DNA from: Salinibacterium hongtaonis
GTDB lineage: Bacteria; Actinomycetota; Actinomycetes; Actinomycetales; Microbacteriaceae
Assembly: GCF_003065485.1 (NCBI RefSeq)
Contig: NZ_CP026951.1
Span: forward strand, 1,674,001-1,738,000
Direction of reading: 5' to 3'
Length of the DNA stretch: 64,000 nt
Positions 47,900 through 55,341 of the stretch are shown here, piece after piece. Under the pieces are notes generated by a model, which saw only the letters and a program-made list of their open reading frames with translations, ran no database searches and was not told where the DNA came from. The translations under genes and the position numbers were made by a program. Each line of letters opens with the position of its first letter. Position 1 is the first letter of the stretch.

Positions 47900-48829
47900 A
47901 TGCAATGGTGGAATGACACGATCGACTGGATCACTTCAACCGATGGGCGCGAGGTCATTACGACCGCCGTTCTCCCCTTCGTAGCGATCATCGTGGCCGG
48001 ACTCATCGCCGCCCTCATCGGCAGGTCGACCTCCCGCCGCACGATCGCCCTGATCGACCGGGAGCACCGCACGACCGCGGTGACCGCAATCATCAGCGCA
48101 GCGCGCCGAGCAGCCAAGTGGAACACGCTGTCGTTGCCGGAGCAGCAGCACGCCGAGCACCTCTTTCATGAGGCCGACACGAGCATCCGTCTGCTGCCCC
48201 TTGCTGGCAGTGCGATGGCAGCAGACTGGGCCGCCCATGAGATCGACGAAATGAAGAAGAACTCGGTCTCCTTCAGCTTTCAGGCCGACCAGTCACTCAT
48301 TGATTTTCGTGACCGCCTTGTCGAATGGCAGGGACGCCCGAGCCGTGCCAAGAAGCTGTTCAAGAGCGACCTCGAAACCTGGGCATACGAGTCGAGCCTT
48401 GCAGACAAGGACCTCGTAGCAAAGCAGCAGGAGTGGGCCAAGAACCAGGTCGAAGACGCGCTGCCCGCAACGTTCGCGACGCCGGTTGCGCCTGCGACAG
48501 CACCCGCCGCAACGCTGACTGCCCCCGCAACCACACCGACCACCGCGCCGGCCGACGAACCGGCCAGCGCACCCTCGCCGTGGCCTTCACGCGACTCGGC
48601 CGCCTGGCCCGCTTCATCAACTGCAGAAGCGACCACTGCCGACGTGCCCGAACCATCACAGAACACGAGTGCTGCGGAAACGGCGCCGGAGATTCCCAAG
48701 TTTGTGGTCCCCTCAGTGCGCCCGTTGTCGGTCGACGAGGGAAACACTCCGACCTCAGATGATGCGACCGCAGCCCCGGTATCGGCCGGAACCGTTCGTC
48801 AGCGCATCAGCCCCGACACCACCTACTAG
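47900..48829 (+). CDS. Hypothetical membrane-anchored protein with disordered tail
   Basis: 309 residues. One membrane helix near the N-terminus (VLPFVAIIVAGLIAALIG), a helical domain to about residue 190 (QHAEHLFHEADTSIRLLPLAGS, SLIDFRDRLVEWQG), then about 115 residues of Pro/Ala/Thr repeats. Similar one-helix proteins are widespread in Micrococcales, but I cannot name a function. Its stop overlaps the convergent flavoprotein gene by 4 bases. Confidence 0.82.
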   Translation: MQWWNDTIDWITSTDGREVITTAVLPFVAIIVAGLIAALIGRSTSRRTIALIDREHRTTAVTAIISAARRAAKWNTLSLPEQQHAEHLFHEADTSIRLLPLAGSAMAADWAAHEIDEMKKNSVSFSFQADQSLIDFRDRLVEWQGRPSRAKKLFKSDLETWAYESSLADKDLVAKQQEWAKNQVEDALPATFATPVAPATAPAATLTAPATTPTTAPADEPASAPSPWPSRDSAAWPASSTAEATTADVPEPSQNTSAAETAPEIPKFVVPSVRPLSVDEGNTPTSDDATAAPVSAGTVRQRISPDTTY

Positions 48830-50259
48830 ACCGACTGCGCGGAATCTCTGCCGTATCCCTCCAGCAGACGAAGCCACACCTCGCTCATAGTGGGAAACGC
48901 GGGAACAGCGTGCCACAACCTACTGAGCGGTATCTCACCGACGATCGCGGTCGTGGCGGCGTGCAAGAGCTCGGCAACATCGGCACCGACGAATGTGGCG
49001 CCGACGATCACTGATCGCTCTCGATCGACGACCATCCGTGCCGCACCCTCGTAGTGGTCTTCGCGCAGGCTAGCGCCAGACACAGCCCCAAGGTCGTAGT
49101 CGATCACCTCAACGGTGAGACCGGCCGCGCGGGCCGTGTGAGCGGTGAGCCCGACGGATGCGACCTCGGGCTCCGTGAACGTGACCTGCGGTACCGCAAC
49201 GTGGTCGGCCGTTGCCACATGTCTGCCCCACGGCTGATCGTCAATGGCAGTACCCGCCGCCCGTGCGGCGATCACATCCCCTGCCGCCCGGGCTTGGTAC
49301 TTGCCCTGGTGGGTAAGCAGAGCTCTGTGGGTAACATCGCCGACGGCGTAGAGCCAATGATTGCCCTGCACCCGCATCGTGTCGTCGGTGGCGATCCACT
49401 CGCCGGGGGTCAACCCCACCGTCTCCAAGCCGATATCCGATGTCCGAGGCTCACGCCCCGTTGCCACCAGCAGTTCTTCTGCTTCGATGGTGCGACCATC
49501 CACGAGCGTCACCGTCACCGTGTCGCCCTCGCGATTCACCGAGTGCGTCTCGGCATTCTCGTGAATGACCACTCCCATCGCGCGGAGCGAATCGGCCACT
49601 CGATCCCCCGCGAACGGTTCCATAGTGGTCAGGATCCCACCCCGGGCAAGCATCGTTACTTCGGTGCCGAAGCCCGCATACGCCGTTGCCATCTCGGCCG
49701 CGACCACACCGCCGCCGATAATGACCAGGCTCGTCGGAGCCGTAGGCGCGCTCGTCGCCTCGCGACTGGTCCACGGCTGTGCGTCTGCCAGGCCCGCTAT
49801 GCGGGGCATCGCGGCACGGGACCCTGTGGCAACAACCACTGCGTGCCTAGCGCGGAGCTTGCGCGCGCCCCCATCACCGAGGGCGACGGTGACCTCACGC
49901 TCCCCGCTCAACCTTCCCGCCCCCCTGATGAGGTCGATTCCTGCGCTTTCTAGCCACTCGACCTGCCCCGCATCCGCCCACTCGGCCGCAAAGAAATCTC
50001 TGCGCTCAAAGACGGCGTCGACGTCGAGAGGGCCAGTGACGGCATCCGCCGCACCCTTCACCCTCTGGGCAGCGCGCATCGCCTGCGCCGGCCTCAGAAG
50101 AGCTTTCGAGGGCACGCACGCCCAGTACGAGCATTCGCCACCCACAAGCTCCGGTTCCACGATGACGGCAGTTAGGCCGCCCTGCACCGCCCTATCGGCA
50201 GCGTTCTCGCCGGCAACGCCAGCACCAAGAACAATCACGTCGTACTCCGCGGTGGTCAT
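48826..50259 (-). CDS. Pyridine nucleotide-disulfide oxidoreductase
   Basis: 477 residues. FAD motif GAGVAGENAADRA, then the redox-active GGECSYWACVPSK with cysteines 43 and 48 (CX4C), the NAD(P)-binding IIGGGVVAAEMATAYAGFG, and a C-terminal dimerisation domain with the His-Glu pair in HAVPAFPTMSE. This is the lipoamide dehydrogenase/mercuric reductase superfamily. The aromatic SYW between the cysteines differs from true lipoamide dehydrogenase (NVG) and is characteristic of an actinobacterial subgroup with unknown substrate. It is the last chromosomal gene before the inverted-repeat element. Confidence 0.92.
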   Translation of the reverse strand: MTTAEYDVIVLGAGVAGENAADRAVQGGLTAVIVEPELVGGECSYWACVPSKALLRPAQAMRAAQRVKGAADAVTGPLDVDAVFERRDFFAAEWADAGQVEWLESAGIDLIRGAGRLSGEREVTVALGDGGARKLRARHAVVVATGSRAAMPRIAGLADAQPWTSREATSAPTAPTSLVIIGGGVVAAEMATAYAGFGTEVTMLARGGILTTMEPFAGDRVADSLRAMGVVIHENAETHSVNREGDTVTVTLVDGRTIEAEELLVATGREPRTSDIGLETVGLTPGEWIATDDTMRVQGNHWLYAVGDVTHRALLTHQGKYQARAAGDVIAARAAGTAIDDQPWGRHVATADHVAVPQVTFTEPEVASVGLTAHTARAAGLTVEVIDYDLGAVSGASLREDHYEGAARMVVDRERSVIVGATFVGADVAELLHAATTAIVGEIPLSRLWHAVPAFPTMSEVWLRLLEGYGRDSAQSV

Positions 50260-50279: not shown

Positions 50280-50816
50280 GGCGCTGGACGGAGCCCCTAC
50301 GCAGTGCTTACCACCGCGCGCGGAGAGCGGGTTCAGGGAAAGGGGTGGCCAGCAGGAGCGAGCGGGCACCGGCGTCGTGTCGTGAATGGAGTGCTGTCAC
50401 TTGCCGAGCTAGTCCGGAAAAGTTGACAACGGCGGAATGCCGAATATGCGGGCGACTCGATAGGAACTCCAGCCAGGGGTTTGACACTCTATTCCGGAAA
50501 CCTCCGCTCGCCACCGCCCGCGGATGCTCTAAGCCAACTGAATCAAGTCATCGACGACGACTCCGCCTTGCTACCCGCAGCCCTCAGATGCAGCCACCTG
50601 TGTCACATCCCATGGCATACGAGACACGCAGGTTTCGAGACACATCGACGCAGGCTCGACCCGATGTTCGAGGGGGCGTCCTTGCCGAAACCAGACATTG
50701 GCTAGTCAATCTGCGACTCCAGGCGCCACACCGCATGCCAGATTTCCGCGTAGGGAGCACCGCGACACGATCGAATCTTCCTGCGCGTCGTTCCCTGCGG
50801 CCGCTACGGTGAGGTC
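50280..50816. other. Gene-poor left margin of the inverted-repeat element
   Basis: No gene is supportable here. It holds the left terminal inverted repeat (from 50394) and a patch of recombination-site-like motifs, GAGACACGCAGGTTTCGAGA around 50621-50640. Short open frames in this stretch have no protein-like character. Confidence 0.55.
50394..50421 (+). repeat. Left terminal inverted repeat of a 4.87 kb element
   Basis: Begins CTGTCACTTG and continues with GCTAGTCCGGAAAA. It matches the reverse complement of 55239-55266 at 24 of 28 positions. The four bases before it, AGTG (50390-50393), recur immediately after the right copy at 55267-55270. Confidence 0.8.
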
Positions 50817-51392
50817 ATGGAGTCCCGCTCAGTTTTTACGCTCGGTGGAATAATCCTTGCTCTCTCGCTGACCGGTTGCGCCGGGACTGCAAGCGACGCC
50901 GGAGTCGCTGCGCGGAGTGATCCAGTTCAGACGAGCGCGCCAGCAATTCCGGAAACCAGGGATGCCGCTGCTGCCGAGCAAGCCCAGGCCTGGCTCGACG
51001 CCGCTAACCTTCCGCCGGGAGCCGTCCGCTCCGATGCAAGCGTCGCCCAGTTCACCTCCTACACGGGGTGGCCGTGCGGCCCGGTCGAGGAACTGGAAGC
51101 GTTCTGGTTTATTCCAGAAGCGAGTATCCATGACACGGCCAGTTGGCTGATGGACCATCCGACCGCGGACCTCATAACGACAGCCATTGGGCCGGTGTCC
51201 GACGACGCGGCGATCGATTCGGCGATCGTCGGCTACATCCCCGCTCCTGGCTCTCAGGAAGGGATTGTCTACACGATCACGAAGATGGATGACGGCGTGG
51301 CGGTGAGGGCCGAGGTCGCCGCTCAAGCCGAGTCCGCCACTTGTCCGCCGATCCCTGACGGCGGGGTGTACGGAGCGCCGGGTCACGGGTAG
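50817..51392 (+). CDS. Hypothetical lipoprotein (element cargo)
   Basis: 191 residues from ATG 50817. The signal peptide ends in the lipobox LTGC with cysteine at residue 21. The mature domain is acidic, with two cysteines (GWPCGPVEE and SATCPPIPDGG) probably disulfide-linked, and a pattern of Trp/Phe near the middle (EAFWFIPEASIHD). No known family. It is the first gene inside the inverted-repeat-bounded segment. Confidence 0.78.
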   Translation: MESRSVFTLGGIILALSLTGCAGTASDAGVAARSDPVQTSAPAIPETRDAAAAEQAQAWLDAANLPPGAVRSDASVAQFTSYTGWPCGPVEELEAFWFIPEASIHDTASWLMDHPTADLITTAIGPVSDDAAIDSAIVGYIPAPGSQEGIVYTITKMDDGVAVRAEVAAQAESATCPPIPDGGVYGAPGHG

Positions 51393-51437
51393 CTTCGCCA
51401 CTTTATCAACCTGTACCGCCCTCGGAGCGAGTTCGTC

Positions 51438-52673
51438 TCATGTCGCGCACGCTGAGGTGACGGCGAGGCTGAGACCCTCGCTGGAACCGCGGATACTGGC
51501 GGAGTGGACACGATCGGTCCTTGGTTCGGCGACGCGCCAGATGTCGGTGCCCATGGCTCGGTCGTAGGGCTGCAGACCTGTTTCAGACCAGTGTGCGGTG
51601 ACTCGTGCGAAGGCCGACTCGAGACCGTCGGAGAGGGAGGACAGCGGCAGGAGCGTGAAAGCGCGGATCTGCATACCTACCCCGTCAGCACAGCTCTCTT
51701 CGCGAGAGTCGACGTCAGCGGTACCTGCTGCGGCCAGAACGGTCTCCTCAAGAAAGCTGATCGCTCCGGACCTCTCCGCGGTGAGATTCGGGGCACTGGA
51801 GGGCTCCGGATTGCGCTGAGGTTCGTCATTCGGTGGAGAAGAGCCCAGGGGAAGGCCGAGCCAACCGGACACCCGCTCCTCGGAGTCCGCGCTCGTGACG
51901 GTGAAAGCTACTCGACGAGCCTGCCCGCGATCAGCGGCATCGTCTGGTGTCCTGGCGAGGGCCTCGGCCATCCGTCCGACATCATCGCTCATAACGTTCA
52001 GCGAGGCCCTTTCTGTGGGCGCGCCCGCAGCAAAGTAAAGGTGGGACACCGCCGGGTCGTCGCTGAGGGATTCAAACAGTGCGATCAGTGCGGCGCCCGG
52101 CTCGAGATCGGTGACGCTGATCGTGACGTCGGCTCGCGTCACGCTGAGCCGGTCGGTCCCGGCCGCGGGGCGCGCCAACGCGATACCTTCGCTCAACGAT
52201 GCCTGGCGCTCAAGGTCTATGTTTCGCCGGAGGGGAGTCAGAGAAACATAGGCGACCTGTGGCGAGCGTCGGAGAGTGTCGGCGAACTCAACCTCAGCAG
52301 CATCCAGAGCGTCCACCACAGTCGCGGCCACCCCCTCCCCAGCAGGGAGCTCCAACGTCGTTGTGAGCTCCGCTCCCCTCACTCCGGGGACGGCTGCCTC
52401 CCTCAGAGCGCCTGCGAGCTCGAGGTCCGTGCCGACGGCCGTAACGAGCACTCGGGCCAGCCAGTCACGTGGCTGGTCTTTGGGATCGACCTGGCCGAGC
52501 GAAGCTTCAACCGTCGAAACGCCTGGCAGATCTCGGAACCGATTCTCGAGCTCGGTGAGCGACTCACGAGCCCCCTGGGGTGGCGTCGCCGGGGGAAAGC
52601 ACGCGCTCAAGCACAGCGCTGCGGCCACGATCGCGAACACCCTGGTCCACCGCTTCGCCCCTCTTGGTTTCAC
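51438..52673 (-). CDS. Hypothetical lipoprotein (element cargo)
   Basis: About 411 residues from GTG 52673; longer reading upstream lacks a sensible start. A basic n-region and hydrophobic core end in the lipobox LSAC with cysteine 25. The mature protein looks like repeated alpha/beta units of about 70-80 residues (ENRFRDLPGVSTVEASLG, then AELTTTLELPAGEGVAATVVDAL, and VSHLYFAAGAPTERASLNV), as in proteins built of several ferredoxin-like domains. No catalytic motif and no family recognised. Confidence 0.75.
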   Translation of the reverse strand: MKPRGAKRWTRVFAIVAAALCLSACFPPATPPQGARESLTELENRFRDLPGVSTVEASLGQVDPKDQPRDWLARVLVTAVGTDLELAGALREAAVPGVRGAELTTTLELPAGEGVAATVVDALDAAEVEFADTLRRSPQVAYVSLTPLRRNIDLERQASLSEGIALARPAAGTDRLSVTRADVTISVTDLEPGAALIALFESLSDDPAVSHLYFAAGAPTERASLNVMSDDVGRMAEALARTPDDAADRGQARRVAFTVTSADSEERVSGWLGLPLGSSPPNDEPQRNPEPSSAPNLTAERSGAISFLEETVLAAAGTADVDSREESCADGVGMQIRAFTLLPLSSLSDGLESAFARVTAHWSETGLQPYDRAMGTDIWRVAEPRTDRVHSASIRGSSEGLSLAVTSACAT

Positions 52674-52865
52674 GTCGCCAGCGTAGAGCCTTCGCTTGGG
52701 GACAATCAGCAGTGGAACCAGGGCGTTCAATAAATGCCAATGGATAAATGCACTAAAGGACCCTAAACGATCGTGCGGAGCGCCCGTCATCGTCGAACCT
52801 GCCGATCGAGCCAGCATCGAGTCTCCTTCTGAGGGCCCCGGCTCATGTGCGTTCTGTGGCTGGCC

Positions 52866-53669
52866 CTACAGTGGCGGGCTCGTATAGAGCCTCGTACTGC
52901 AACCCGCTTCTCCTGGCTCGATCCACATCGGGTCGAACCCAACCCTCTCGATCGCCCCATCGGCGCCACGGACAGCGACGATGCATTCGCGCTCGGATGG
53001 CACCCCGACAGCGGCGACGAGCACCTCTCCAACGGAGTCCGACTCGACGGTGATGAAATCTTGCGGAAATGCCACGCGCAGGTCGGCAGCCAAAGACCCC
53101 GACGTGGCGTACGTCAGCACGCGGGAGATGGTCGCCTGGGCGTCAGCCGGTAATGCGGGAGGCGGATCCGGGACCGGCAGGGCGGGAGCAGCGTCGTTGG
53201 TGCAGACAATTTCATCGAACTTGAGGGTGTCGTAGAAGCGGCTGCCAACGACGTGGTAGCGATAGCACCGCGTCGCCGAGCCGGGCCCATACGACGCCTC
53301 AAAAATGCGTGTCGCCGAGTGCGCGGGGACGTCAATAGTGATCCGAACGTCGATCTCGGCGCCGTCGCCGGACCCGGATGTGCCCGACCACGCGAGGGCC
53401 TCGACCCGTATCCCTCTCGAAGGGTCGTTGCTAGCTGCGATGTGTTCTACGACAAACCAGTCCGCCTCACGGGAGAAGATCACGGGCGGCGTCATGGCGG
53501 TGCCCATCTCCTCGGCGAGTTGCTGCGCCTGCTCCGCAGCTATTGAATCGCCGCGTGGCGGAGCGGATGCGCAAGCGGTGCTCGATGCCGCAGCCGCGGC
53601 CACGAGAACGATCCAAGCCGCACCGCGCGCCCAGGGCAGACGCAGCATTCTTCGCTCGCCGCTTCGCAT
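52866..53669 (-). CDS. Hypothetical lipoprotein (element cargo)
   Basis: About 267 residues from ATG 53669; ATG 53648 and GTG 53675 are alternative starts. The signal region ends at STAC, cysteine about 33. The mature protein contains cysteines in SATRCYRYHVVG, DEIVCTND, ERECIVAV and EAGCSTRL, probably two disulfides, and a beta-rich middle (VEALAWSGTSG, IDVRITIDVPAHS). It follows the previous gene's strand and, like it, has no recognised family. Confidence 0.75.
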   Translation of the reverse strand: MRSGERRMLRLPWARGAAWIVLVAAAAASSTACASAPPRGDSIAAEQAQQLAEEMGTAMTPPVIFSREADWFVVEHIAASNDPSRGIRVEALAWSGTSGSGDGAEIDVRITIDVPAHSATRIFEASYGPGSATRCYRYHVVGSRFYDTLKFDEIVCTNDAAPALPVPDPPPALPADAQATISRVLTYATSGSLAADLRVAFPQDFITVESDSVGEVLVAAVGVPSERECIVAVRGADGAIERVGFDPMWIEPGEAGCSTRLYTSPPL

Positions 53670-53859
53670 GCGCACAGCGTAGCGGCGAACCCCTGCTGAA
53701 GTGCGCCCGCATTCGCCTCAAAACCCTTGAGTTCTGAGACAGCTGGGTTACGAGAACAACCATGGCCCTTTAGGCACAGGGCACCATGCGCCGAAAGTCC
53801 GGTGGTCTGCCGGCGCACTCTAGGTTGCGTGATCACCTAGGTGGCCTTACCATCTAGCC

Positions 53860-54213
53860 ATGAATGACGATAGCGAGTGGCCGACGGACTGGCTTCGGGC
53901 CGTGTTGTCACCGGCCGTACTCAGGGTGCTGGCCGACGGTCCGACCTACGGCTACGCAATCTCAGCACGCCTGGAAGCAGCAGGCTTCGGGAAGGTGAAA
54001 GGCGGCACTTTATACCCACTTCTTGGGCGGCTCGAAGTCGCCGACCTCGTTCGTACCGAGTGGCGTGCGGGCGAAGCCGGACCTGGACGCAAGTACTACG
54101 AGCTCACTCCCGGCGGTAAAGCGAGCCTTGCCGAGCAAGCCGAGCGCTGGACCCGCTTCGTCACCGTCACTGAATTGCACTTACAGACCACAACGGAGGA
54201 ACAGCATGACTGA
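53860..54213 (+). CDS. PadR-family transcriptional regulator
   Basis: 117 residues. The PadR winged helix is clear: LSPAVLRVLADGPTYGYAISARLEAAGFG, then KGGTLYPLLGRLE and GPGRKYYELTPGGKASL. PadR proteins of this size repress a neighbouring membrane protein or exporter gene. Its stop overlaps the start of the downstream membrane protein by 8 bases, so they are co-translated. The element's cargo thus carries its own regulator. Confidence 0.93.
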   Translation: MNDDSEWPTDWLRAVLSPAVLRVLADGPTYGYAISARLEAAGFGKVKGGTLYPLLGRLEVADLVRTEWRAGEAGPGRKYYELTPGGKASLAEQAERWTRFVTVTELHLQTTTEEQHD

Positions 54214-54943
54214 CCGCAGCCTTGAAGCGGAGTTTGCCCCGGACATCGATGCACAGTGGGCGGGGGACTTTATCCTCGAGGCGCGCCTTCTCGACGTGCC
54301 GGGTGACCGGATCGGTGATTCCCTTAACGACGTGAATACGCACTGCCGCGACGCGCGCGAAGCAGCGGATATAGCGTTTGGTGACCCCACGGAGTACGCG
54401 CGGGTTATAGCTGCGCAGAGCACCCCCTCGACCACCCGGTGGCTCCCTCTCCTAGGGCCAACTAGCTTGCAGATCATCGGCGTCGTTCTCGGACTTCACG
54501 GCGTCGGCGGTTGGGTCACGGGGAACGCTCATCCGCTTACCTGGAGCACAGGAGCCATGCTCATCGCACTCATCGGAGGCGTTTCGTTGCTCTCCGTTGC
54601 GCTCTCGCGTTCCCTGCGAGCGATCGTACGTCGCCCGTTCATCGGTGCACTCTTGGTTGGAGTTGCCGGCGCCCTCCTGTTCGCAGGGCCATATCTACTG
54701 CTTCTCATAGAGACGCCCCCGCTGCCGCTGCCTACGGGTCTCGTCTTCGCACTCGGCATCACCATTCTGGTGATCGGAATCGGCCTTGCCGTAGCGACCG
54801 CAAGAACAGGGAACGTCGATGACCCGATCAGTGCACCGGGAATAGCCCCACGGTCGCGACGAGAAAAGTACCTAGTTGCCGGAGCCCCACTGGCCTGGCT
54901 AGTCGTGGGGGCGACGCTCATCATCCTCTTCGCCCCACGCTAG
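54206..54943 (+). CDS. Membrane protein with HAAS-like N-terminal domain
   Basis: About 245 residues from ATG 54206, preceded by GGAGGA. The first 65 residues resemble the HAAS (DUF1700) helical signalling domain usually encoded next to PadR regulators, including SLNDVNTHCRDAREAADIAFGDPTEYA. About five membrane helices follow. The pair is a common PadR/HAAS module in which the membrane protein is thought to sense the envelope; the signal is unknown. Confidence 0.82.
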   Translation: MTDRSLEAEFAPDIDAQWAGDFILEARLLDVPGDRIGDSLNDVNTHCRDAREAADIAFGDPTEYARVIAAQSTPSTTRWLPLLGPTSLQIIGVVLGLHGVGGWVTGNAHPLTWSTGAMLIALIGGVSLLSVALSRSLRAIVRRPFIGALLVGVAGALLFAGPYLLLLIETPPLPLPTGLVFALGITILVIGIGLAVATARTGNVDDPISAPGIAPRSRREKYLVAGAPLAWLVVGATLIILFAPR

Positions 54944-55218
54944 AGCACCGACAACCTACGGGACAGTGTCCTGTATGCCGATGAGGACGCGCCATGTTTC
55001 GAAACCCTTGGGATGCGAGACGTCTCGGCGCAGGTCCGCGCTCGTGGGAGCCCGATCCTCTCCTCGCTGGCGCGACGATTCTCGTAACTATGGCGCATAA
55101 CCGGTGGAAGCCTTTTCGGTACGCAACCTCAGTTACGAGACACTCGGGCAAGGAGACACGCCGCCCCGACTAGCCCCCGAATTCGGGTCAGCCGGCTCGC
55201 GCAAGCACGTGATCCCGA
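54944..55218. other. Gene-free right margin of the element with palindromes
   Basis: No gene. Contains GGACAGTGTCC (54961 region), the palindromes GTTTCGAAAC (54996-55005) and GAGACGTCTC (55017-55026), and a further ACGAGACACTC (about 55134). The motifs resemble those in the left margin and look like degenerate site-specific recombination sites. Confidence 0.5.
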
Positions 55219-55266
55219 TTTTCCAAACTAGGTGGCAATTTTCCGAACTAGCGTGACAAGTGACAG
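55219..55266 (-). repeat. Right terminal inverted repeat with internal tandem units
   Basis: Read on the minus strand from 55266: CTGTCACTTG, then CTAGTTCGGAAAATTGCCAC and CTAGTTTGGAAAATCGGGAT, two near-identical 20-base units. The outer 28 bases mirror the left repeat at 50394. Multiple short repeats inside an end are a known feature of IS21-family elements. Confidence 0.75.
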
Positions 55267-55268
55267 AG

Positions 55269-55341
55269 TGCCCCCGGCAGGATTCGAACCTGCGACCAAG
55301 AGATTAGAAGGCTCCTGCTCTATCCCCTGAGCTACGGAGGC
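55269..55341 (-). tRNA. tRNA-Arg (anticodon TCT)
   Basis: Full cloverleaf on the minus strand: acceptor GCCTCCG with CGGGGGC, D-stem GCTC/GAGC, anticodon loop CTTCTAA, T-arm GCAGG-TTCGAAT-CCTGC, discriminator A. No encoded CCA. The anticodon stem has one mismatch next to the loop. Its 3' end lies two bases from the right inverted repeat. Confidence 0.96.

What the first reader, a model, noticed from the sequence alone, without database searches (positions are those of the whole stretch)
50394..55266. 4.87 kb element with terminal inverted repeats inserted at the 3' end of tRNA-Arg, carrying no transposase
Seen directly: CTGTCACTTG...GCTAGTNCGGAAAA at 50394-50421 is mirrored at 55266-55239 with 24 of 28 bases identical; both tips face outward; AGTG flanks both sides (50390-50393 and 55267-55270), and the right copy of AGTG includes the last bases of the tRNA-Arg gene. 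The right end also has two 20-base tandem units. Multi-repeat ends and 4-bp duplications are known for IS21-family elements. Inside are three lipoproteins, PadR and a HAAS-like membrane protein, but no IstA/IstB. Either a non-autonomous element moved by a transposase elsewhere, or two IS ends have captured the cargo.
Basis: partly seen in the sequence, partly recalled or inferred. Interest (0 to 1): 0.75.

Follow-up and report, generated by a model that had tools for sequence, protein, structure and literature searches.

The report
Transposase-less Tn7-like elements stacked at tRNA-Arg
A stretch of five passenger genes appears to have been pasted precisely beside a tRNA gene by a cut-and-paste transposon machinery that it does not itself encode, and it belongs to a family of such cargo-only elements that pile up at the same tRNA genes in related bacteria.

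Summary
The element is real. Its inverted ends match at 24 of 28 bases and it sits flush with the 3' end of tRNA-Arg(TCT). The duplication is best read as 5 bp (AGTGC), not 4, with one extra G at 55266.

The ends define a family. They match in 3 of 5 genomes of the host genus, 29 of 57 Cryobacterium-group genomes at up to 3 mismatches and 0 of 362 sampled genomes from other families of the order. At 31 sites in 30 genomes an end faces tRNA-Arg 2-5 nt from its 3' end. Elements of 0.5-20 kb stack in tandem, mostly with 5-bp duplications. One empty site matches the joined flanks with a single duplication copy.

The IS21 reading is not supported. Autonomous TnsA-B-C elements in the same family have similar but diverged ends, the same duplication length and, in three of four cases, the same flush insertion, at tRNA-Gly. 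The window element is best read as a non-autonomous Tn7-like cargo element moved in trans and homed to tRNA-Arg. No helper with matching ends was found; that step is inferred.

The parts
50390..50394 (.). left copy of the 5-bp target-site duplication, AGTGC
   Evidence: same pentamer between stacked elements in the relative L034
50395..50420 (-). left (L) end, outermost repeat; tip TGTCACTTG
   Evidence: 35.7 bits in a matrix that includes this sequence
50395..50642 (.). left arm, 95.6% identical to the second stacked element of G004, whose interior genes differ
50817..51392 (+). cargo: lipoprotein 1 (lipobox LTGC, by eye); 82% identical homologue beside an R end in L094
   Evidence: no Pfam hit
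51438..52817 (-). cargo: putative lipoprotein 2 (lipobox LSAC, by eye; true start probably inside the ORF)
   Evidence: no Pfam hit
52866..53675 (-). cargo: putative lipoprotein 3 (STAC, by eye)
   Evidence: no Pfam hit
53860..54213 (+). cargo: PadR-type regulator (PF03551)
54206..54943 (+). cargo: HAAS-like membrane protein (21.3 bits, below the Pfam cut-off of 27)
55000..55265 (.). right arm, 94.7% identical to the second stacked element of G004
55219..55238 (+). right (R) end, inner repeat TTTTCCAAACTAGGTGGCAA
55239..55265 (+). right (R) end, outermost repeat; tip CAAGTGACA
   Evidence: 39.9 bits in a matrix that includes this sequence
55266..55266 (.). single extra G between the R tip and the duplication, absent from G003 and G004
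55267..55271 (.). right copy of the 5-bp target-site duplication, AGTGC, overlapping the tRNA 3' end
55268..55341 (-). tRNA-Arg(TCT), the target gene, left intact

Best explanation
The element is a non-autonomous, cargo-only derivative of actinobacterial Tn7-like transposons. Its ends carry what look like binding sites for a TnsB-type transposase (two at R, one plus a partial at L). A TnsA-B-C machinery supplied in trans cut it out and pasted it, R end towards the tRNA, a few nt past the 3' end of tRNA-Arg, leaving a 5-bp duplication and an intact tRNA. New copies enter between the tRNA and older copies, so elements stack. Shown: anatomy, family, duplication, empty site (for a relative's element), stacking, R end towards the tRNA, absence of Tns genes from the loci with these ends, and similar ends with the same geometry on TnsABC elements at tRNA-Gly. 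Inferred: that a TnsB of this clade recognises these ends, that a selector specific for tRNA-Arg exists, and that movement is in trans.
For: Geometry: an end faces tRNA-Arg 2-5 nt from its 3' end at 31 sites in 30 genomes (41 of 78 end rows, of which 10 repeat a site; loci were mostly chosen because they held an end), with TCT or CCG anticodons; 29 of the 31 show the second inner R repeat, four of them imperfectly (by eye). Duplications: of 17 elements with both ends read, 9 have identical 5-bp flanks, 4 are identical with a 1-bp offset (the window among them), 2 match at 4 of 5, and 2 with degraded L ends do not match. Empty site: the L069 flanks joined with one GGTGT match L269 (G432) across the junction with only scattered substitutions. 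Stacking: L034, L226, L228, L229, L243 and L068. Cargo only: TnsA, TnsB and TnsC models hit none of 87 loci that include all loci with these ends fetched as stretches. TnsABC cousins: TnsA (NF033179, 1.3e-48), TnsB (profile matches Tn7 TnsB 7pik, E 1.3e-12), TnsC (TniB, 3e-18). Three of four whose two ends were read lie 2-4 nt from a tRNA-Gly 3' end with duplications ATTGG, GTGGA and CACGG and two R repeats. A matrix built from the present family only scores two of their eight ends at 15.7-16.0 bits, with no hit at >=15 in 1.03 Mb of reversed control. Recent mobility: arms about 95% identical to G004 while four host genes measured are 75-83%.
Against: No autonomous element with these ends was found by pattern plus TnsB searches of 398 family genomes or 57 Cryobacterium-group genomes, nor in the 15 stretches from an exact-pattern scan of one genome for each of 84,980 species. 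Only 4 of 29 Cryobacterium-group genomes with an end match have a strong TnsB match, and 0 of 5 host-genus genomes do. Six of the eight TnsABC ends score under 15 bits in the family matrix, against 20-43 for most family ends, so TnsB sharing is not proven. One of the four TnsABC elements (G371) is not at a recognised tRNA. Some family-like ends have no tRNA-Arg beside them (L074, L077, L078, L085, L094). The fourth protein of the operon matches Pfam TniQ in only 1 of 9 members, at E = 0.23. Stacking is unexpected if Tn7-type target immunity operates.
Confidence: 0.8

Rival explanations
1. The ends belong to an IS21-family element (IstA/IstB) and the cargo lies between two captured IS21 ends or in an IS21-derived non-autonomous unit.
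For: IS21 ends are also built of multiple repeats (passages of PMC10122671). One element, L231, contains istA and istB over the curated cut-offs.
Against: The own genome has no IstA above cut-off. A search with that IstA/IstB pair in 87 loci hit only itself (a single-sequence search can miss distant IstA). The pair starts 0.6 kb and 1.6 kb inside the outer ends of its element, and sequence near L231:4164 looks like a separate IS end without the CCGAACTAG motif (by eye). TnsABC elements carry similar ends. IS21 genes and their ends were not surveyed across the carrier genomes.
Confidence: 0.06
2. A decayed autonomous Tn7-like transposon: the window copy jumped with its own tns genes and later lost them.
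For: Ends and site are Tn7-like. Some copies have degraded L ends (L034 first element, L244).
Against: No tns gene or remnant at the thresholds used in any of 17 two-ended elements, including elements of 0.53 kb and 20.4 kb. Arms shared with G004 at about 95% enclose different cargo. Loss inside a single copy cannot be excluded.
Confidence: 0.12
3. A tRNA-integrating genomic island of the tyrosine-recombinase type.
For: tRNA 3' ends are the classic target (recalled), and 44-45-bp tRNA-Arg 3' fragments that look like att duplicates occur in related genomes.
Against: The window element has a 5-bp duplication and inverted tips, and no integrase among its five cargo ORFs. The empty site of the L069 element shows insertion beside an intact tRNA, with a 5-bp duplication.
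Confidence: 0.02

Closest known systems
Actinobacteria-dominated clade 2 of Tn7-like transposons (Benler et al. 2021, PMC8649781; passages read)
   Same: Arrays of TnsB-type sites at the ends; the paper notes insertion downstream of tRNAs for Tn7-like transposons; 5-bp duplication as in Tn7 (recalled)
   Different: The elements here carry no tnsA, tnsB, tnsC or selector found. That survey required tnsB, so it would not call them. Placement of the present TnsB genes in clade 2 was not tested
TnsABC + DUF4379-repeat elements at tRNA-Gly found here (L127+L179, L172, L171+L182)
   Same: Similar L/R ends, two R repeats, duplication length, R end 2-4 nt from the tRNA 3' end
   Different: They carry their own transposition genes, measure 20.6 and 11.6 kb (two measured), lie at tRNA-Gly, and have diverged end sequences
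tRNA-homing CASTs, e.g. CyCAST type I-D (PMC10293859, passages read)
   Same: TnsD-type homing to a tRNA gene
   Different: CyCAST inserts 30-33 nt downstream of the tRNA; here insertion is 2-5 nt from it. CRISPR genes were not searched for specifically; none appeared among the ORFs scanned
IS21 family (PMC10122671, passages read)
   Same: Repeats at both ends
   Different: No IstA/IstB in the window element; end motif and tRNA homing are shared with TnsABC elements instead

Membership tests
Tn7-like transposon | tnsA/tnsB/tnsC inside the element | tested here: not met
   none in the window element or the other two-ended elements
Tn7-like transposon | TniQ/TnsD-type target selector inside the element | tested here: not met
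   PF06527 0 of 18 genomes, a model that also misses the selector-position protein of the local TnsABC sets; the one hit, L040, is not a locus with these ends
Tn7-like transposon | asymmetric ends with several transposase sites and TGT/ACA tips | tested here: met
   similar ends on TnsABC elements
Tn7-like transposon | 5-bp target-site duplication (recalled as a Tn7 feature) | tested here: met
   9 of 17 exact, 4 more exact with a 1-bp offset, 2 at 4 of 5, 2 without a match
Tn7-like transposon | orientation-specific insertion at one conserved gene end | tested here: met
   31 sites in 30 genomes, R-type end (two repeats) visible in 29; off-tRNA ends also exist
Tn7-like transposon | mobilised by a TnsABC machinery | not testable with these tools
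   needs a transposition assay
IS21 family | istA and istB | tested here: not met
   one pair in another element only
IS21 family | ends homologous to a resident IS21 element | tested here: inconclusive
   IS21 ends of carriers were not surveyed; the L231 IS21 appears to have different ends (by eye)
tyrosine-recombinase tRNA island | integrase gene and long direct att repeat | tested here: not met
   window element; relative's element

The most novel reading that the evidence does not exclude
Microbacteriaceae maintain a satellite class of Tn7-like elements: cargo-only units that home to tRNA-Arg through helpers usually absent from the genome, escape target immunity, and accrete head to tail into gene arrays whose contents are swapped between shared arms. 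That would be an integron-like gene-collecting site built on a transposon att site. The target may need only the last ~45 bp of the tRNA gene, since ends also lie beside isolated 45-bp tRNA-Arg 3' fragments (G399, G429, G432, G441), unless islands later separated tRNA and element.
Probability: 0.4. Interest if true: 0.75.

Novelty: new variant of a known kind. Interest (0 to 1): 0.62.

Why it matters
Catalogues of Tn7-like elements that start from the transposase gene miss cargo-only units. Here about half of the sampled genomes of one genus match the ends (29 of 57), with loads from 0.5 to 20 kb, so part of the island content at tRNA genes in this family may be moved by a Tn7-type paste reaction rather than by integrases. 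Natural stacks a few bp apart make target immunity in actinobacterial Tn7-like systems directly testable. The TnsABC + DUF4379 operons found here are candidates for insertion systems that act flush with a tRNA gene.

Tried and rejected
Looked for an IS21 partner in the own genome: one sub-threshold hit, 19 bits. Looked for TniQ (PF06527) in 18 genomes: none; the model also fails on this clade's selector-position protein. Searched for dispersed copies of the end in the own genome: only three sites, all in the element's two ends, have 0-1 mismatch; at up to 2 mismatches there are 27 hits against 38 for the reversed control. Scanned viral contigs: none with the exact window R end, one with the degenerate pattern, taken as chance because no second repeat lies beside it. 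Set aside two other classes of Mu-transpos_C gene: short IS481-like ORFs (two named) and Tn5053-like TniA genes in 7 Cryobacterium-group genomes, 6 of 7 with a TniB-like neighbour, without matching ends at >=12 bits within the stretches fetched. L140 (TnsABC with a tRNA-Arg(ACG) in the stretch) was rejected as the missing helper: its repeat array lies 3 kb from the tRNA and differs. L082 and L092 single hits are probably chance. Plasmids with TnsB: 550 records, all under 60% identity, none followed up. For G402, G404, G418, G443 and several other TnsB sets both ends were not established. L128 and L129 ends were not found. Of 81 cargo ORFs listed for 16 other elements (the 20.4-kb one in two stretches), only 27 were scanned with Pfam or NCBIfam and 2 more with PADLOC only.

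Literature: seven searches listed nothing on transposase-less Tn7-like stacks, and none for Cryobacterium with Tn7. They cover open-licence PubMed Central only; apart from four papers read in passages I saw listings.
Full report
What is there. The window element runs from 50395 to 55265 (4,871 bp). Its outer arms match at 24 of 28 bases and it is flanked by the 5-bp direct repeat AGTGC (50390-50394 and 55267-55271). The right copy overlaps the 3' end of an intact tRNA-Arg(TCT) gene (55268-55341). A stray G at 55266 separates the right tip from the repeat; in G003 and G004 the junction reads CAAGTGACA|AGTGC|CCCC. The right end has two ~20-bp units and the left one full unit plus a partial. The cargo is three putative lipoproteins, a PadR regulator and a HAAS-like membrane protein. 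No transposase was found in these five ORFs.

It is a family. Of the four other genomes of the host genus, two carry the same ends at the same tRNA. G003 has one of 8.1 kb with type I restriction genes (HsdM and HsdR by PADLOC) and an IS3 gene. With up to three mismatches the end was found in 16 of 398 genomes of the family; several of these have a single 3-mismatch hit and may be chance. Its Cryobacterium-group form was found in 29 of 57 genomes with no hit for the reversed control; here too some are single 3-mismatch hits. At two mismatches it was found in 2 of 396 genomes of the order, both in the host family, and so in 0 of 362 genomes of other families. An exact-pattern scan of one genome per 84,980 species gave 15 stretches: 11 titled Cryobacterium, one Salinibacterium, one uncultured Microbacteriaceae, one Aeromicrobium and one Reyranella. 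The first of the single metagenome hits (L082) and the Reyranella one (L092) are probably chance. Group names rest on record titles and matching contig lengths.

Geometry. In the loci scanned, 41 of 78 end rows face a tRNA-Arg; after removing 10 rows that repeat a site, that is 31 sites in 30 genomes. Most of these loci were fetched because they held an end, so this is not a frequency. The tip lies 2-5 nt from the tRNA 3' end in each. In 29 of 31 the inner repeat of the R end is visible by eye, imperfectly in four; it is missing in L237 and L241. The anticodon is TCT in the host genus and CCG in the Cryobacterium group; G237 has both. The other rows are L ends, junction ends, repeats of the same site, ends beside tRNA fragments, and ends without a tRNA (L074, L077, L078; also L085 and L094). 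In the less selected set of 30 loci fetched by the tRNA side, 13 of 30 have an end at the tRNA at >=15 bits.

Duplications. Both ends could be read for 17 elements of 0.53-20.4 kb. Flanking pentamers are identical in 9; identical with a one-base offset in 4 (window, L070, L225/L226 first element, L227); 4 of 5 in two (L230, L231); and not matching in two with degraded left ends (L034 first element, L244). L070 and L243 carry a similar 1.77-kb element in two species, so the 17 are not all independent.

Proof of insertion. A query of tRNA-Arg(CCG) plus its 5' side matched 56 of 57 Cryobacterium-group genomes; 30 loci were returned. Joining the flanks of the L069 element (G240) with one copy of GGTGT reproduces the tRNA junction of L269 (G432) with only scattered substitutions. 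L230 against L247 and L264, and L231 against L269, agree less closely; their duplication copies differ at one base and their R ends lie beside a 45-bp tRNA fragment. For the window element itself no such empty relative was found. The tRNA is not altered. This fits transposition with a 5-bp duplication rather than integrase-type exchange.

Stacking and cargo. New copies lie between the tRNA and older copies, usually with one pentamer at each junction: L229 reads AGAGT-element-AGAGT-element-AGAGT-tRNA, and L243, L226, L228 and L034 are similar, while L068 has 7 nt between ends. Cargo varies: HNH protein, HsdM and HsdR, pretoxin-HINT protein, pectate-lyase-like protein, NAD-binding protein, ATPases, a class I (W/Y) tRNA synthetase, MFS transporter, LysR regulator, sigma factor (29 of 81 listed ORFs scanned in any library). 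The window element and the second G004 element share both arms at about 95% identity, although four host genes measured around them are 75-83% identical; none of the window cargo proteins has a tblastn match in that element. So the ends moved recently between species and cargo has been exchanged between the arms.

Whose ends? A family search for Mu-transpos_C genes (40 of 398 genomes) led to operons of TnsA, TnsB, TnsC and a fourth protein with treble-clef (DUF4379) repeats. TnsA matches the actinobacterial TnsA model, a TnsB profile matches Tn7 TnsB in the PDB, and TnsC matches TniB. It has the duplication ATTGG and lies 3 nt from tRNA-Gly(TCC). G417 (GTGGA, 2 nt) and G409 (CACGG, 4 nt) show the same at tRNA-Gly(CCC). 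G371 has TCTCG and no recognised tRNA. A matrix built only from the present family scores two of these eight ends at 15.7-16.0 bits; the other six fall below 15, and reversed control had no hit at >=15 in 1.03 Mb. The shared core is AACTAG plus the ..TGACA tip, so the relation is clear in layout and partial in sequence.

What is missing. In 87 loci, including the fetched stretches with family ends, no TnsA, TnsB or TnsC model hit was found; one weak selector hit (L040) is not at such a locus. Strong TnsB matches occur in 6 of 57 Cryobacterium-group genomes, four of them among the 29 with an end match; one of these, G404, rests on a 3-mismatch end. In the host genus it is 0 of 5. I found no autonomous element with these ends. 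Movement in trans by a transient helper, for example on a plasmid, is inference. L094, labelled Aeromicrobium, shows an R end next to a homologue of window lipoprotein 1 and beside what looks like an excisionase gene rather than a tRNA (the gene call is by eye), which would fit a vehicle.

IS21. Multi-repeat ends are also an IS21 trait (PMC10122671, passages). The own genome lacks IstA above the model cut-off. One element (L231) contains istA and istB over cut-off; searching with that pair hit nothing else in 87 loci. L035 and L228 contain IS3 genes, so insertion sequences are cargo in some copies. No transposase common to the elements was found. IS21 was not surveyed in all carriers.

Known context. 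Benler et al. (PMC8649781, passages) describe an Actinobacteria-dominated clade of Tn7-like transposons with no experimentally characterised member, required tnsB to call an element, and mention insertion downstream of tRNAs. A review (PMC11406308, passages) describes tRNA att sites and target immunity. CyCAST homes 30-33 nt downstream of a tRNA (PMC10293859, passages), whereas here insertion is 2-5 nt from it. My searches listed no report of transposase-less stacks of this kind; only open-licence papers were searched.

Verdict. By strict membership the element is not a Tn7-like transposon, since it lacks the core genes. It works like one in ends, duplication, orientation and homing, and is best called a non-autonomous Tn7-like element. 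Confidence 0.8 for that reading, lower for the helper.

Noticed in passing
L036:11909-12071; L038:7925-7967: G001 and G002, which lack the ends, carry repeats of the 3' ~44 bp of tRNA-Arg(TCT) with a short hairpin-like spacer, like att duplicates.
   Followed up: partly
G399:C84:240298-240342, G441:C1:2381876-2381920, G429:C19:216409-216453, G432:C15:79103-79147: Family ends also lie 3-5 nt from isolated 45-bp tRNA-Arg 3' fragments. Either the fragment alone is a sufficient target, or an integrase island later split tRNA and element.
   Followed up: partly
window 50599-50621 and 55000-55022: Imperfect inverted motif (CGAAACCCTTGGGATGCGAGACG-like) lies at the two points where the arms shared with G004 end and the cargo differs; a third copy is at 53719.
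   Followed up: partly
window 48826-50259: The disulfide reductase gene left of the element lies elsewhere in G002 (68% identical) and was not matched in the fetched tRNA-Arg stretches of G001-G004, so the left flank is itself variable.
   Followed up: partly
L127, L137, L171, L172: TnsA-TnsB-TnsC operons followed by a ~660-aa protein with treble-clef DUF4379 repeats in the target-selector position; three of these four elements lie at tRNA-Gly 3' ends.
   Followed up: partly
L094:1998-2740: R end beside an excisionase-like gene (by eye), with a close homologue of window lipoprotein 1 next to it: an off-tRNA copy.
   Followed up: partly
L275-L281: Tn5053-like TniA genes in 7 Cryobacterium-group genomes (TniB-like neighbour in 6; TniQ-position protein and resolvase read in L276), without ends of the present family in the stretches fetched.
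   Followed up: partly
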